Positions 7,621 through 58,606 of a DNA stretch of 64,000 nucleotides are shown here, piece by piece. A model generated the notes under the pieces. That model worked only from the letters and a program-made list of their open reading frames with translations. It did no database searches and was not told where the DNA came from. The stretch comes from Fusobacterium necrogenes (lineage in GTDB: Bacteria; Fusobacteriota; Fusobacteriia; Fusobacteriales; Fusobacteriaceae): positions 868,001 through 932,000 of the forward strand of contig NZ_UGGU01000003.1 of the NCBI RefSeq assembly GCF_900450765.1, given 5' to 3'. Made by a program: the position numbers and the translations under genes. Every line of letters begins with the position of its first letter. The stretch's first letter is position 1.

Positions 7621-8475
7621 TTATTTAGAATGATATAGTGACTTAAATCCTTCTCCTAAAACTTCTGAAACATCTGATATTGTTAAAAAAGCAAAGTTAT
7701 CTATTTCTTTTACTATTGTTTTAACCTTAATTACTTCAAATTTACTCACAACACAAAAAAGTAAATCCATCTCATTTCTAGTGAATCCCCCTTGACCTTT
7801 TATAATGGTTATTCCTCTCCCAGTTTCATTCATTATTCTGACTCTTATCTCTTCAGTTTTTGTTGAAATAATAGTAATTCCCTTTGATTTTGTATATCCA
7901 TCTTGAAAATAATCTATTGTTTTAGAGACTATCATCATAGCTATTAAGGTATACATAACTATCTCTTTTCCAAAAAAAATAGCCGCAATCCCTAAAATTA
8001 CAATATCTAAAAATAACATTGTAGCCCCTAGTGAAATATTAAAATATTTATTCAATATACGAGCTATTATATCAGTTCCACCAGTTGACCCATTCACTAC
8101 AAAAATAAGACCCAAACCTACTCCAATAAAAACTCCACCATATATTGAGCCTAGCATTATATCACTATTTGGTCCTTTCCAACCCTCAGTAAGAATTATT
8201 ATAAATGATAAACAAGCTGTCCCATAAAGAGTTTTAAATAAAAAATCCTTACCTAATAATTTCCACGCTATAATAAGAAGAGGTATATTTATTACAAAAT
8301 ATGTTATTCCAACTGGTAATTTGAATAAGTAATATAGAATTAGACATATTCCAGCCACACCTCCCTCAGCTAAATGATTTGTTATAAAAAAATAATTAAT
8401 AGAAACTCCGTAAAAAAAACATCCTATTGTAATTACTATATATTCTTTTAAATAATTTAAAATTTTAGAACTCAC
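7621..8475 (-). CDS. YitT family membrane protein (DUF161 + DUF2179)
   Basis: A 284-aa protein with five or so N-terminal transmembrane helices (about 10-170) followed by a soluble DUF2179 domain (about 195-275; GRGITIIKGQGGFT is typical). Family members are common in Firmicutes and Fusobacteria, and their transport or signalling role is unresolved. The start is a GTG at 8475 with a purine-rich GAAGAAG seven bases upstream; no better in-frame ATG with a ribosome binding site is visible. It is transcribed alone and convergent with the thymidine-kinase-like gene. Confidence 0.85.
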   Translation of the reverse strand: MSSKILNYLKEYIVITIGCFFYGVSINYFFITNHLAEGGVAGICLILYYLFKLPVGITYFVINIPLLIIAWKLLGKDFLFKTLYGTACLSFIIILTEGWKGPNSDIMLGSIYGGVFIGVGLGLIFVVNGSTGGTDIIARILNKYFNISLGATMLFLDIVILGIAAIFFGKEIVMYTLIAMMIVSKTIDYFQDGYTKSKGITIISTKTEEIRVRIMNETGRGITIIKGQGGFTRNEMDLLFCVVSKFEVIKVKTIVKEIDNFAFLTISDVSEVLGEGFKSLYHSK

Positions 8476-8588
8476 TTTTTTACTTCTTCACTCCTTTCAT
8501 ATTACATATTATATTAAGTTCTTTTCTTCTATAATTCAGCAACTTCCGATTCTTAGATATGATAGTTTTTGAAAAATAATTAAGAAAA

Positions 8589-8619
8589 AAGAGTTATTAT
8601 ACTCTCTACAATAACTCTT
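8589..8619 (-). terminator. Intrinsic terminator of the decarboxylase-arginase gene
   Basis: AAGAGTTATT pairs with AATAACTCTT and is followed on the minus strand by a T run. It lies just downstream of the stop codon at 8632. Confidence 0.8.
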
Positions 8620-8631
8620 CTGAATACTTAA

Positions 8632-10983
8632 TTAATAATCTGGATTAACTACATACTCTGTTAATTCATTTACAAAATCTAATGTTTTGTTATTTTTATC
8701 ATTTACTGGATTAAATTCAACTATATCCACCGAAGTTACAAAATAATTTTTAAATAAAAATTTGAAAGTTTGAAATATTTCATCAGTAGTAAATCCATTT
8801 CTCACTGGAGTACTAACTCCTGGAGCCAATTCTGGATTTACAGAATCTACATCAAAACTGATATGTAAATTATCTACTTTTAAATACTCTTGTATTTCTT
8901 CTAATACTCTATCTAGGCCTTTTTGTAATACTTCATCATGATAAATTACCTTGACACCTAATTGATCTATCACTTCTCTTTCTTTAAAGTCTAAATCTCT
9001 AGCACCTAATATTACTACATTTTTACTATCAATTTTAGCTCCTTCGTAAAAACAATTTACCAAATCTCTATCTCCAGCACCTTGTAATAATGCAAGTGGC
9101 ATCCCATGAATGTTCCCAGATATAGTTGATTCATCAGTATTCATATCCCCATGGGCATCTATCCAAACTACTCCAATCTCTTTTTCTAATGATACTCCAG
9201 ATATACTTCCTAAAGCTATCGAGTGATCTCCACCAATTATTATTGGTCTATATCCGTCTCTAACCGCTTCATTTACAGAAACAGCAAGTTTTTCACAAGT
9301 ATTTAAAATAGTATTTTTATATTTTAAATTCCATTCGTTAAAATTTTCTTTTTGCTTTTCAATATTTATAACTTCTATTTCATCAAAGGTATCAGGGTAA
9401 TTTTCACATAGCACATCTATACCAAATTCAATTCCTGCTTTATTTGCTCCTAGATTCATTGGAACACCAAACATCTTACTTTTCATTTTTTCTGTATATA
9501 AATATACAGCATCTTCTTCTTCTATTACATTAATGGTTACTAGTTCCGGATCTTCCATTCCTTGGACATGAAGCTCTGCATCTCTTAGATCATTAATATA
9601 CTCTATAATTTCAGTAGAAATCCTTTCTCCAGGTGTTATTACAGGAATTCCTGGGGGATATGCCATTATCATTTCACCACAAATTTTTCCTTCACTTTCT
9701 GCGAATAATATCTTATTTTTTTCACTATAAAAAGCTTCTCTTGGTATTAATACCTGTTCTGGAATAGGAGGCATCTTTAAAAATTCTCTTTTTAATTTAT
9801 TCCCTTTAGCATAATATTTTTCGCTTATATCTTTTAAAGCATTAATAAGTTTATCAATACTTTCATCTGTGTCTCCGATAGTTACCAATCCTAAAACATT
9901 ATAAAAATCAGATAATTCCATTTGTATATTGTATTTTTCTGTCAATATACTCTCTAATTCTGCACCAGTAAGACCTAATTCTTTAGCTGTAACAGTTATT
10001 TTGGTCGGATCAAAAGCAAATACTCCTTCTTTTCCTACTATTTCTTCTCCAAAACAAAATATTCCTGGAATTCTGTTTACTTCCGTCCTAAAACGCCTTG
10101 CAAGTTTTATAGCTTTATCTAATAATTCAGTTCCTTCTGTTGCTATCTGCCTTCTAGCACAATCTAATGATGCCATTAAAGGATATGATGGAGATGTTGT
10201 GTGTAATAAGCTTAAAATTTGTTTTACTCTATTTATATCTACTCTATCAGAATTAACATGAAGTAATGACATCTGAGTCATAGCACCAATTATTTTATGT
10301 GTACTTTGCGTACATATATCCGCTCCAGCATCTACAGCAGAAATAGGTAAGTCATCATGAAAATGTAAATGTGGCCCATGAGCTTCATCAACTATCAAGG
10401 GTATATCATAACTATGAACTATATCAGCTATCTTTTTTATATCTGTAGCTATTCCATAATAAGTTGGATTAATTATTAGTACAGCTTTAATATCAGGATG
10501 TTGCTTCAACATATTTTCAACAGTTTGAGGTCTTACACCATGAGCTATCCCTAATTCTTCATCTACTTCTGGATTCATATATATTGGTTCTGAACCACTT
10601 AGTATAATTCCAGCAGATACTGATTTATGTACGTTTCTTGGTACCAATATTTTTTCGCCAGCTTTCACTACAGACATAATCATAGCTTGAATAGCTCCTG
10701 ATGTTCCATTTACTGCAAAAAAACTTTTTTTAACACCATATGCATCAGCCGCTAATTCCTGTGCTTCCTTTATACAACTTTTCGGTTGATGTAACCCATC
10801 TACCATCTTAAATATAGTAACATCAATTGAAAAAGGACCATTTCCCATAAAATCATAAAATTCTTTATCCACACCTTTCCCTCTTTTATGTCCTGGTACA
10901 TGAAATGGAAGTATGTCTCTTCCTACATATACATCCTTTAATATAGAGAATAGTGGAGTCTTATTTTGGTCTAGCTTTGACAT
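8632..10983 (-). CDS. Fusion protein: Orn/Lys/Arg decarboxylase domain + arginase domain
   Basis: A 783-aa two-enzyme polypeptide. Residues 1 to about 500 are a full PLP-dependent Orn/Lys/Arg decarboxylase: PFHVPGHKRG at 26-35, IVDEAHG at 197-203, PLP lysine Lys230 in STHKIIGAMTQ, and the C-terminal decarboxylase subdomain around 435-455. Residues about 503-783 are a complete ureohydrolase with all six Mn ligands: GGDHS (584-588), DAHGDMN (609-615) and SFDVD (709-713). SGNIHGMPLA after DAHGD is typical of RocF-type arginases rather than agmatinases. Likely route (inference): arginine to ornithine plus urea, then ornithine to putrescine; arginine decarboxylase activity is the alternative. I chose the ATG at 10983 because AAAGGAGG precedes it. 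Confidence 0.88.
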   Translation of the reverse strand: MSKLDQNKTPLFSILKDVYVGRDILPFHVPGHKRGKGVDKEFYDFMGNGPFSIDVTIFKMVDGLHQPKSCIKEAQELAADAYGVKKSFFAVNGTSGAIQAMIMSVVKAGEKILVPRNVHKSVSAGIILSGSEPIYMNPEVDEELGIAHGVRPQTVENMLKQHPDIKAVLIINPTYYGIATDIKKIADIVHSYDIPLIVDEAHGPHLHFHDDLPISAVDAGADICTQSTHKIIGAMTQMSLLHVNSDRVDINRVKQILSLLHTTSPSYPLMASLDCARRQIATEGTELLDKAIKLARRFRTEVNRIPGIFCFGEEIVGKEGVFAFDPTKITVTAKELGLTGAELESILTEKYNIQMELSDFYNVLGLVTIGDTDESIDKLINALKDISEKYYAKGNKLKREFLKMPPIPEQVLIPREAFYSEKNKILFAESEGKICGEMIMAYPPGIPVITPGERISTEIIEYINDLRDAELHVQGMEDPELVTINVIEEEDAVYLYTEKMKSKMFGVPMNLGANKAGIEFGIDVLCENYPDTFDEIEVINIEKQKENFNEWNLKYKNTILNTCEKLAVSVNEAVRDGYRPIIIGGDHSIALGSISGVSLEKEIGVVWIDAHGDMNTDESTISGNIHGMPLALLQGAGDRDLVNCFYEGAKIDSKNVVILGARDLDFKEREVIDQLGVKVIYHDEVLQKGLDRVLEEIQEYLKVDNLHISFDVDSVNPELAPGVSTPVRNGFTTDEIFQTFKFLFKNYFVTSVDIVEFNPVNDKNNKTLDFVNELTEYVVNPDY

Positions 10984-11101
10984 CTTACCTCCTTTGAACA
11001 TTGTTTTTTTTATCTAATTATCGTATAATTTTCTTATACTGATGTATTGTAAAGCTTTTTATTAAAATAGTCAATAATTTTTATTTTTTTAGGAGAAAAA
11101 T

Positions 11102-55557: not shown

Positions 55558-56475
55558 TTATCTGTGAGCTGTCCCTACTAACTCACTTATATTTTCAAGT
55601 ACATTCTCTTCACAATATTTTTGTAATCCCTCAGCTATTTCTACAGCTAGCATAGGATTAGAGAAAATAGCTGAACCTATTGATATCATAGAAGCTCCAG
55701 CCATTATAAACTCAAGAGCATCTTCTACTGAAGCTATTCCTCCCATTCCAATAATAGGAATATTTACAGCTTTATATACTTGATAAACCATTCTTACAGC
55801 TACAGGTTTTACAGCTGGTCCAGAAAATCCTCCAAAAGTATTTCCTAATACTGGTTTTTTAGTTCTTATATCTATTACCATTCCAAGTAAAGTATTGATA
55901 AGAGATACTGCATCTGCTCCATTTTCCTCTACTATCTTAGCTATACTAGCTATATCAGTAACATTTGGAGAAAGTTTTACTACTAATGGTTTAGATGTAA
56001 CTTTTCTTACCTCTCCTGTTACTCTAGCAGCTACCTCTGGATTAGCTCCAAAAGCCATACCTCCATCTTTTACATTTGGACAAGAGATATTTAACTCTAC
56101 TACTGCTATTTCAGGAATTTTATCTACTCTTTTTGCTATTTCAACATACTCCTCTACAGTTTTTCCGTTGATATTAGCTATTATATTTGTAGTTATTCCT
56201 TGAGCTTTCATCTCTGGTAAAATGTGAGATTCAAAATAATCTATTCCAGGATTTTCAAGTCCTACACAGTTTAACATTCCAGCAGGAGTTTCAGCTATTC
56301 TTGTACCATAGTTTCCATCTCTTGGCTCCACAGTAAGCCCTTTTATTCCTATTCCCCCTAATATATTTGGGTCAAAATACTCTTTATATTCCATTCCAAA
56401 TCCAAAACAACCAGAAGAAGTTACTATCGGATTTTTAAAATCTACACCTAAAAATTTGGTTTGTAATCTGTTCAT
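55558..56475 (-). CDS. pyrD: Dihydroorotate dehydrogenase, type 1B catalytic subunit
   Basis: A 305-aa FMN-dependent enzyme oxidising dihydroorotate to orotate, working with PyrK. Catalytic Cys in VVELNISCPNVKDGG and FMN block GMGGIASVEDALEFIMAGAS are visible. I start at MNRLQTKFLGV (56475) with a GGAGGA site; the longer frame overlaps the pyrK stop. Type 1B enzymes pass electrons to NAD through PyrK's FAD and [2Fe-2S] cluster. Confidence 0.95.
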   Translation of the reverse strand: MNRLQTKFLGVDFKNPIVTSSGCFGFGMEYKEYFDPNILGGIGIKGLTVEPRDGNYGTRIAETPAGMLNCVGLENPGIDYFESHILPEMKAQGITTNIIANINGKTVEEYVEIAKRVDKIPEIAVVELNISCPNVKDGGMAFGANPEVAARVTGEVRKVTSKPLVVKLSPNVTDIASIAKIVEENGADAVSLINTLLGMVIDIRTKKPVLGNTFGGFSGPAVKPVAVRMVYQVYKAVNIPIIGMGGIASVEDALEFIMAGASMISIGSAIFSNPMLAVEIAEGLQKYCEENVLENISELVGTAHR

Positions 56476-56491
56476 CTTTTCCTCCAACAAA

Positions 56492-57298
56492 TTAATTTCC
56501 ACAACAAGTTTCAGTTTTTTCTACAACTGGGTCAAAGTCTACAATAGTTTCAGAATCAAAAACAGGTCCATCATGGCAAACTTTTTTCATTCCAAATTTT
56601 GTTTTGATTGAGCAACCAACACAAGCTTTTACTCCACAAGCCATTCTAGCTTCCAATGAAATTTCACATTTAGTTTCAAATTTCTTAGCTGTTTTTGCAA
56701 CTGCTTCCATCATTTTTTGTGGTCCACAAGTAAATACCATATCATATTTTTTAACTTTCATTAATTCTTCCATTTTAACTATAACATTTCCATGTATACC
56801 TACAGAACCATCATCAGTTGTAATATAGTTCTCTATTCCATCAAGATTGAAATTTGACATTATCTCCATAGCTTCTTTGTTTCTTCCACCAGCTATAAAA
56901 GTAACTTTATTATTTTTAGATAAAACTTCTATTAATAGTTTCATTGGAGCCATTCCCATTCCTCCACCTACTACTAATAACTCTTTCCCAGAGATTTCTG
57001 TTGTAAATCCTGTTCCAAGTGGTCCTTGAATATTGATTATCTCTCCAGCTTTCATAGAGACTAAATCTTTAGTTCCTCCACCTTTTATCTCATAATAAAA
57101 CTCTAAAATATTATTCTCTTTATCTGCATAATGTAAGCTGATAGGTCTTCTTAAAAAATATACACCATTTTTACATTGTAACATATAAAACTGTCCAGCT
57201 TTAGCAGTTTTTACTGTTTTATCTCCTTTTACTTTCATAAGGTAGTTGTGTCCAGCAACTAATTTGTTTTCTAAAATTTCACAATTTTCTAAAAACAT
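56492..57298 (-). CDS. pyrK: Dihydroorotate dehydrogenase electron transfer subunit
   Basis: A 268-aa FAD/[2Fe-2S] protein relaying electrons from PyrD to NAD+. FAD-binding RRPISLHYAD, NAD-binding LLVVGGGMGMAPM, and C-terminal cluster cysteines in CGVKACVGCSIKT plus KKVCHDGPVF are visible. The start ATG at 57298 has GGGAGGA upstream. The gene is separated from pyrD by 16 bp and from pyrB by a palindromic element. Confidence 0.95.
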   Translation of the reverse strand: MFLENCEILENKLVAGHNYLMKVKGDKTVKTAKAGQFYMLQCKNGVYFLRRPISLHYADKENNILEFYYEIKGGGTKDLVSMKAGEIINIQGPLGTGFTTEISGKELLVVGGGMGMAPMKLLIEVLSKNNKVTFIAGGRNKEAMEIMSNFNLDGIENYITTDDGSVGIHGNVIVKMEELMKVKKYDMVFTCGPQKMMEAVAKTAKKFETKCEISLEARMACGVKACVGCSIKTKFGMKKVCHDGPVFDSETIVDFDPVVEKTETCCGN

Positions 57299-57541: not shown

Positions 57542-58606
57542 TTAAATTTCCTTACCACAGTAATAACAGAATTTTCCATAATCTTTTACCACTACTTTAT
57601 TCTCTGTCTCTTCATAATGAGTTACACACTTAGGATTTTTACAAACAGTTAAGAAGTGTCCTTCAACTTCCTCTTTCTCCTCTTTTCTAGGAGCAGTGGA
57701 ATTTTTTAATCCTAGTGCTAAAACATACATAGCCTCTCTTGTAGGAACTCCATTTGCTGCTTGTTTAAAATATAGTGCATGCTTTGTATCATCTAAATCT
57801 ATATTTATCTCATCTACTCTTGGTAGTGGATGTAATATTATCATATGCTCTTGACACTTATTTAATATAGTATCCTTAGATATTTTGTAAACTCCACTTA
57901 CTTTATTATACTCCTCTATATCATCAAATCTTTCTCTTTGAATTCTTGTCATATAAAGTACATCTATCTCTTTTAATATTGGTTCATACTCAGAACAGAT
58001 ATGGTATTTCATTCCTTTTTCATCTAACTCTTTAGTGATGTACTCTGGTATTTGTATTGATTCTGGAGCTACGAAATAAAACTCTCCACCAAACATCTCT
58101 AATGCTTTAGTAAGAGAGTGTACAGTTCTTCCATATTTTAAATCTCCTACAAAAGCTATTTTAATATTTTCAATTCTTCCAATCTCTTTTTTTATTGTAA
58201 ATAAGTCTAAAAGAGTTTGACTAGGGTGTTCATTTGCTCCATCTCCAGCATTGATAACAGGATTTTTAGAAATTTCAGAAGCGAATTTTGCCGCTCCCTC
58301 TATATAGTGTCTCATAACTATTATATCAGAGTAAGCCTCTACCATTTTTATAGTATCTCTTAAAGACTCCCCTTTCTTTAATGAAGTAGCATCTGGAGAA
58401 TCAAATCCTAAAACTTGTGCTCCTAATCTATAAGCTGCTGATGTAAATGATAATCTTGTTCTTGTTGAAGGTTCAAAGAATAAACTTCCTACTATTTTCC
58501 CCTTTGCCAACTCTGCTTCTGATTTTTGTGAAAGTTCATTTGCTACTTCTAATACTTCTAATATCTCTTCTTTTGTTAAATCTTTAATAGATATGAAGTT
58601 TTTCAT
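57542..58606 (-). CDS. pyrB: Aspartate carbamoyltransferase with fused PyrI-type zinc module
   Basis: Condenses carbamoyl phosphate and aspartate. Catalytic-chain motifs: FFEPSTRTRLSF (44-55), HPSQTLLDLF and HPLPRVDEI. The family catalytic chain is ~305-310 aa; this protein has 354. The extra C-terminal tail (about 315-354) has Cys322-x4-Cys327 and Cys347-x2-Cys350 in a VCKNPKCVTHYEE...CYYCGKEI layout, very like the zinc-binding domain of the E. coli regulatory chain PyrI. The nucleotide-binding allosteric domain of PyrI is absent. It is first in the operon, behind a leader-peptide attenuator. Confidence 0.93.
   Translation of the reverse strand: MKNFISIKDLTKEEILEVLEVANELSQKSEAELAKGKIVGSLFFEPSTRTRLSFTSAAYRLGAQVLGFDSPDATSLKKGESLRDTIKMVEAYSDIIVMRHYIEGAAKFASEISKNPVINAGDGANEHPSQTLLDLFTIKKEIGRIENIKIAFVGDLKYGRTVHSLTKALEMFGGEFYFVAPESIQIPEYITKELDEKGMKYHICSEYEPILKEIDVLYMTRIQRERFDDIEEYNKVSGVYKISKDTILNKCQEHMIILHPLPRVDEINIDLDDTKHALYFKQAANGVPTREAMYVLALGLKNSTAPRKEEKEEVEGHFLTVCKNPKCVTHYEETENKVVVKDYGKFCYYCGKEI

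What the first reader, a model, noticed from the sequence alone, without database searches (positions are those of the whole stretch)
8632..10983. Single polypeptide joining an Orn/Lys/Arg decarboxylase to a RocF-type arginase
All catalytic residues of both enzymes are visible (PLP Lys230; six Mn ligands in GGDHS, DAHGDMN and SFDVD). SGNIHGMPLA favours arginase over agmatinase. That predicts arginine to ornithine to putrescine in one protein, possibly with channelling, plus urea. If the decarboxylase instead takes arginine, the two domains would compete for one substrate, an equally unusual arrangement. Similar fused entries may already exist in databases with mixed annotation.
Basis: partly seen in the sequence, partly recalled or inferred. 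Interest (0 to 1): 0.72.

Follow-up and report, generated by a model that had tools for sequence, protein, structure and literature searches.

The report
Known ornithine decarboxylase-arginase fusion, Fusobacterium
This is a Fusobacterium version of an already published double enzyme that should turn arginine into ornithine and then putrescine; this copy keeps the arginase residues that the well-studied oral relative has lost.

Summary
In detail: one uninterrupted 783-codon gene (8632-10983, minus strand) joins a wingless Orn/Lys/Arg decarboxylase to an arginase-type ureohydrolase, with the PLP lysine, six Mn ligands and catalytic histidine in place. It is no assembly error: 50 of 98 Fusobacteriota genomes, all in one family, carry the full fusion. 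Nor is it new. The fusion was reported in 2021 (PMC8503589), a 2022 paper treats arginase loss in oral species, and a 2025 paper (PMC12826042) shows the gene essential in F. nucleatum, where two Mn aspartates are Ser609 and Asn713. The window protein is the intact kind. Its genome has no other arginase-family gene and no agmatine deiminase, but has speD, speE, argCBDF and argG, so the likeliest route is arginine to ornithine to putrescine to spermidine. Channelling is untested. What I add: the arginase half seems to have lost catalytic residues on three separate lines, was removed once, and in one draft genome stands alone. A different fusion, decarboxylase with agmatine deiminase, occurs in 29 of 61 genomes around an uncultured Firmicutes.

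The parts
8632..10983 (-). ODC-arginase fusion gene (783 codons plus stop)
   Evidence: open reading frame, Pfam domains, 51 colinear fusion proteins
9514..10983 (-). decarboxylase half, residues 1-490 (wingless/ancestral AAT-fold form)
   Evidence: PF01276 at residues 9-373 and PF03711 at 382-477; no REC domain before it
10294..10296 (-). K230 codon, PLP-binding lysine in STHK
   Evidence: motif position; K in 51 of 51
8635..9489 (-). arginase half, residues 499-783
   Evidence: PF00491; aligned end to end with PDB 8d27 and with Bacillaceae-type arginases
9145..9159 (-). DAHGD: Mn ligands D609, H611, D613
9223..9225 (-). H587, Mn ligand in GGDHS
9106..9108 (-). H626, catalytic His in SGNIHG
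8845..8853 (-). D711 and D713, Mn ligands in SFDVD
10988..10993 (-). AGGAGG ribosome-binding site for the 10983 start
   Evidence: read
8587..8621 (-). intrinsic terminator-like hairpin followed by a U run, right after the stop; points to a single-gene transcript
   Evidence: fold -15.9 kcal/mol, z -4.2; not listed by the G+C-based terminator scan

Best explanation
A bifunctional enzyme of the published Fusobacteriaceae ODC-arginase family, of the catalytically intact kind. The C-terminal half, with a binuclear Mn site, should hydrolyse L-arginine to L-ornithine and urea (inferred from residues). The N-terminal PLP half should decarboxylate L-ornithine to putrescine (shown by others for the F. 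nucleatum fusion; inferred here from position in the tree). SpeD and SpeE elsewhere in the genome should take putrescine to spermidine (inferred from genes). Direct hand-over of ornithine between the halves is possible but unshown.
For: Intact K230, six Mn ligands, H626 and E756. The substrate loop (NT...SGNIHG) and D665/E668 line up with B. caldovelox-type arginases such as 1cev. rocF model 213.8 bits against 78 for agmatinase. The ODC half sits in a supported clade (96/88) with the F. nucleatum-type fusions and the decarboxylase-only g6 proteins; the F. nucleatum fusion is a tested ODC, and so is the 490-aa F. necrophorum enzyme, which I take g6 to represent from length only. In G000 the fusion is the only PF00491 hit and PF04371 has none, so agmatine would have no recognised way on to putrescine. 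speD and speE are adjacent elsewhere in G000.
Against: The rocF equivalog cut-off is not reached (213.8 versus 227.6 bits). No activity of this protein or of any intact member was seen by me in print. The published F. nucleatum member is arginase-dead. The genome can probably make ornithine itself (argCBDF, argG), so arginase is not strictly needed as an ornithine source and would waste arginine if unregulated.
Confidence: 0.77

Rival explanations
1. The arginase half is mainly structural or regulatory, and the cell uses the protein as an ornithine decarboxylase; arginase turnover is marginal even where the residues are intact.
For: Five of 51 fusions have lost Mn ligands yet keep the whole half in frame, with low dN/dS in the arginase half of the S609/N713 clade (0.035, 0.103, 0.124 in its 3 pairs). 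In F. nucleatum the ODC half alone meets the essential need.
Against: 46 of 51 keep all six ligands and the catalytic His, which a purely structural part would not need. Two genomes have lost the half altogether (G037, G038), and the ODC half alone works in yeast.
Confidence: 0.13
2. Arginine decarboxylase plus agmatinase: arginine -> agmatine -> putrescine in one protein.
For: Both halves belong to superfamilies that hold such enzymes; a Psychrilyobacter homologue 45% identical to the F. necrophorum ODC is an arginine decarboxylase.
Against: Arginase-type loop and D665/E668; agmatinase model 78 bits against a cut-off of 174.3; the nearest tested relatives prefer ornithine (63-fold over lysine and 309-fold over arginine for F. 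necrophorum).
Confidence: 0.06
3. Assembly error or two genes read as one.
For: None found.
Against: 51 colinear fusions from 50 genomes, no stop inside; published cloning of the F. nucleatum orthologue as one 783-aa ORF.
Confidence: 0.01

Closest known systems
F. nucleatum ornithine decarboxylase/arginase (Oda; WP_005898385, 783 aa; PMC8503589, PMC12826042; Mothersole et al. 2022 Biochemistry 61:1378, title and citation only)
   Same: Same length, same domain order, monocistronic; the F. nucleatum-type locus L046 is 81% (ODC half) and 68% (arginase half) identical to the window protein.
   Different: There the Mn ligands 609 and 713 are Ser and Asn and the arginase is called inactive; the window protein has Asp at both. 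PMC12826042 says F. nucleatum lacks speD and speE; the window genome has them.
PDB 8d27 (chain named 'Arginase', 287 aa)
   Same: Aligns over the whole arginase half; nearly the same protein as the arginase half of L046.
   Different: Carries Ser and Asn at the two ligand places. That it comes from the 2022 paper is my recollection; no call showed the entry's title or citation.
F. necrophorum ODC (WP_005954404, 490 aa; PMC8503589)
   Same: Wingless ODC with kinetics measured by others; decarboxylase-only relatives in G037/G038 are 76% identical to the ODC half.
   Different: No arginase half.
Free-standing Mn arginases (B. caldovelox 1cev, 6dkt, 6nfp, 6nbk; the species name of 1cev is recalled)
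   Same: All ligands and the substrate loop.
   Different: Stand-alone enzymes; only moderately similar to the window domain (E-values 1e-52 to 1e-57).

Membership tests
Fusobacteriaceae ODC-arginase (Oda) | one polypeptide, OKR_DC_1 + OKR_DC_1_C followed by Arginase, about 783 aa | tested here: met
Fusobacteriaceae ODC-arginase (Oda) | ornithine decarboxylase activity | not testable with these tools
   shown by others for F. nucleatum
Mn arginase (ureohydrolase) | six Mn ligands and catalytic His | tested here: met
Mn arginase (ureohydrolase) | arginase rather than agmatinase substrate loop (SGNIHG, N615, D665, E668) | tested here: met
   which residues contact substrate is recalled
Mn arginase (ureohydrolase) | score above the NCBIfam rocF equivalog cut-off | tested here: inconclusive
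   213.8 bits against 227.6, so the cut-off is missed; the PF00491 gathering score is passed easily (193.9 versus 22)
Ancestral (wingless) AAT-fold ODC | no N-terminal REC domain, PLP lysine present | tested here: met
Ancestral (wingless) AAT-fold ODC | ornithine preferred over lysine and arginine | not testable with these tools
   inferred from the tree
Agmatinase | score above agmatinase equivalog cut-off | tested here: not met
   78 bits against 174.3

The most novel reading that the evidence does not exclude
The fusion is a module that evolution takes apart again and again: formed once in Fusobacteriaceae, kept intact in most lines including this one, but its arginase half was switched off by different residue changes on three separate lines (S609/N713; G609/N626; G609/R611/G613/G713 with N626), removed outright in a fourth group, and in one draft genome the decarboxylase half went instead. 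Cells that get ornithine by other means would shed arginase catalysis yet keep the folded half, so it has a second, non-catalytic task.
Probability: 0.45. Interest if true: 0.45.

Novelty: already known. Interest (0 to 1): 0.27.

Why it matters
Putrescine made by this protein is essential in F. nucleatum. The intact members, such as this one, are the natural comparison for asking why the oral species gave up arginase and why they keep a dead domain. They also make the old question of substrate hand-over in a two-step fusion directly testable.

Tried and rejected
Assembly error: rejected. A fusion outside Fusobacteriaceae: the Bacilli locus L006 seemed to match residues 6-762, but it holds two overlapping ORFs, a 498-aa decarboxylase and a separate ureohydrolase, so no fusion. 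Arginine auxotrophy as the cause of arginase loss: argG is missing in the three S609/N713 genomes G016-G018 but present in G050 and G044, which also lost ligands, and missing in several genomes with intact arginase halves (e.g. G020, G022, G023, G029), so there is no simple link. Riboswitch: no Rfam match in the window at gathering thresholds. Specially conserved linker: residues 484-500 are no more conserved than many other stretches (313 of 765 windows as high). Structure: AlphaFold2 on 12 sequences gave mean pLDDT 59.6, pTM 0.46, so I drew nothing on channelling and ran no fold search. Faster evolution as a mark of dead halves: arginase/ODC branch-length ratio 1.93 on the 7 dead branches against 1.09 on the rest, and 4 of the 5 dead rows have the highest ratios of the 46 rows compared (the fifth is 11th), but intact branches reach similar values (g8 stem 1.82, L061 2.05), so this is weak. 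No significance test was made on it. dS values are near saturation.

Mislabelled sites (columns headed D183 and E186 pointed at residues 663 and 666) were replaced by 665 and 668.

Full report
What is there. The window lies in a 2.0 Mb Fusobacterium genome. The nearest named relative of the gene is F. mortiferum An814, 96% identical. One minus-strand ORF, 8632-10983, encodes 783 residues: a wingless Orn/Lys/Arg decarboxylase (PF01276, PF03711) followed by an arginase-family domain (PF00491). An AGGAGG sits four bases before the ATG at 10983, and a hairpin with a U run follows the stop (z -4.2). The next gene on the same strand starts 156 bases beyond the stop, at 8475, so the gene is probably transcribed alone, as reported for F. 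nucleatum.

It is real and widespread. Searching 98 genomes of the phylum and reading the matches, I find full-length fusions in 50 genomes, all among the 61 of the window's own family and none among the other 37. One genome, G053, has two copies, giving 51 proteins. The 11 family members without a full fusion are G013, G037-G040, G054, G056 and G058-G061. They include decarboxylase-only genomes (G037, G038), genomes with a more distant decarboxylase of about 45% identity (G040, G054, G056, G059-G061), two with no match (G039, G058) and one arginase-only genome (G013).

It is known. PMC8503589 (2021; passages and section 10 read) describes the F. [quoted passage not shown] PMC12826042 (2025; passages read) names the gene oda, shows that it is essential for putrescine in F. 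nucleatum, and cites Mothersole et al. [quoted passage not shown] That paper is not held. I recall its abstract as placing the substitutions only in oral species, but saw only the title and citation. The numbering matches: positions 609 and 713 are Asp in the window and Ser and Asn in L042, L045 and L046, and PDB 8d27 has the same Ser and Asn.

How it most likely works. The window protein keeps every ligand (H587, D609, H611, D613, D711, D713), H626 and E756. Its substrate loop matches free arginases, and it scores 213.8 bits against the arginase model and 78 against agmatinase, the former being below that model's own cut-off of 227.6. In the tree of the decarboxylase half it falls in a 20-row clade (96/88) that holds the F. 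nucleatum type and the decarboxylase-only group g6. In its genome the fusion is the only arginase-family gene and agmatine deiminase is absent. speE and speD are neighbours elsewhere. Arginine to ornithine to putrescine to spermidine is therefore the simplest reading. The genome also carries argC, argB, argD and argF side by side and argG. So it can probably make ornithine and arginine itself, unlike the auxotrophs discussed in PMC8503589, and an active arginase would need some control.

What I add. Of the 51 proteins, 46 keep all six ligands and the catalytic His; five do not. These five fall in three places: L042/L045/L046 (S609, N713), L041 (G609, N626) and L057 (G609, R611, G613, G713, N626). 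L041 is nested with the intact L043 and L025 (support 100/100, 100), and L057 stands apart. Holding all five as one clade, or the first four, is rejected by the AU test (p 1e-64 and 0.0005); these groups were named after the tree was seen. The fewest changes on the tree are 4 with three states (intact, altered, absent), or 3 if altered and absent are merged, because g6 is sister to the S609/N713 group. The altered arginase halves stay in frame, and in the S609/N713 group dN/dS is still low (0.035-0.124 in 3 pairs), so they may still be constrained, though dS is near saturation. G013, a draft genome, has the arginase half alone with its own start at the position matching residue 499 and its own AGGAGG, beside the same kind of divergent gene as in the window; its contig is only 3,864 bases, so this needs an isolate. 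Whether the 2022 paper already reports the L041- and L057-type losses I cannot tell.

Side finding. An uncultured Firmicutes (L010) carries a different fusion: the same kind of decarboxylase joined to a PF04371 domain of the agmatine deiminase type (872 aa), next to an N-carbamoylputrescine amidase-like gene (just under that model's cut-off). Full-length matches (query start 7 or lower, end 865 or higher) occur in 29 of 61 genomes examined around it. In the six loci read, the decarboxylase SxHK and the GGGNxHC motif (recalled as the deiminase's cysteine motif) are both present. One paper search on this pair (19 papers, 15 listed, listings only) showed no title on such a fusion.

Verdict. The value of this copy is as an intact counterpart to the dead-arginase form in oral species.

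Noticed in passing
L010:5989-8607 (also L077, L079-L083): Uncultured Firmicutes/Bacilli encode a decarboxylase fused to an agmatine deiminase-type domain (872 aa), followed by an N-carbamoylputrescine amidase-like gene; full-length in 29 of 61 genomes around it.
   Followed up: partly
L067:2479-3336: G013 has the arginase half alone at what looks like the same locus, with its own start and AGGAGG, beside a divergent PfpI/DJ-1-like gene resembling the one in the window; the decarboxylase half is missing.
   Followed up: partly
L006:5986-8332: Bacilli MAG with decarboxylase and ureohydrolase as two overlapping neighbouring genes, not fused.
   Followed up: yes
L063 and L059 (both G053): One genome carries two different copies of the fusion, both with all Mn ligands.
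   Followed up: no
window 57542-58606, minus: Aspartate carbamoyltransferase, with dihydroorotate dehydrogenase at 55558-56502 nearby: a pyrimidine synthesis cluster, not arginine metabolism.
   Followed up: partly
L075:5417-9985 (G000): An argC-acetyltransferase-argB-argD-argF run in the window's genome; the acetyltransferase inside it is an unassigned GNAT.
   Followed up: partly
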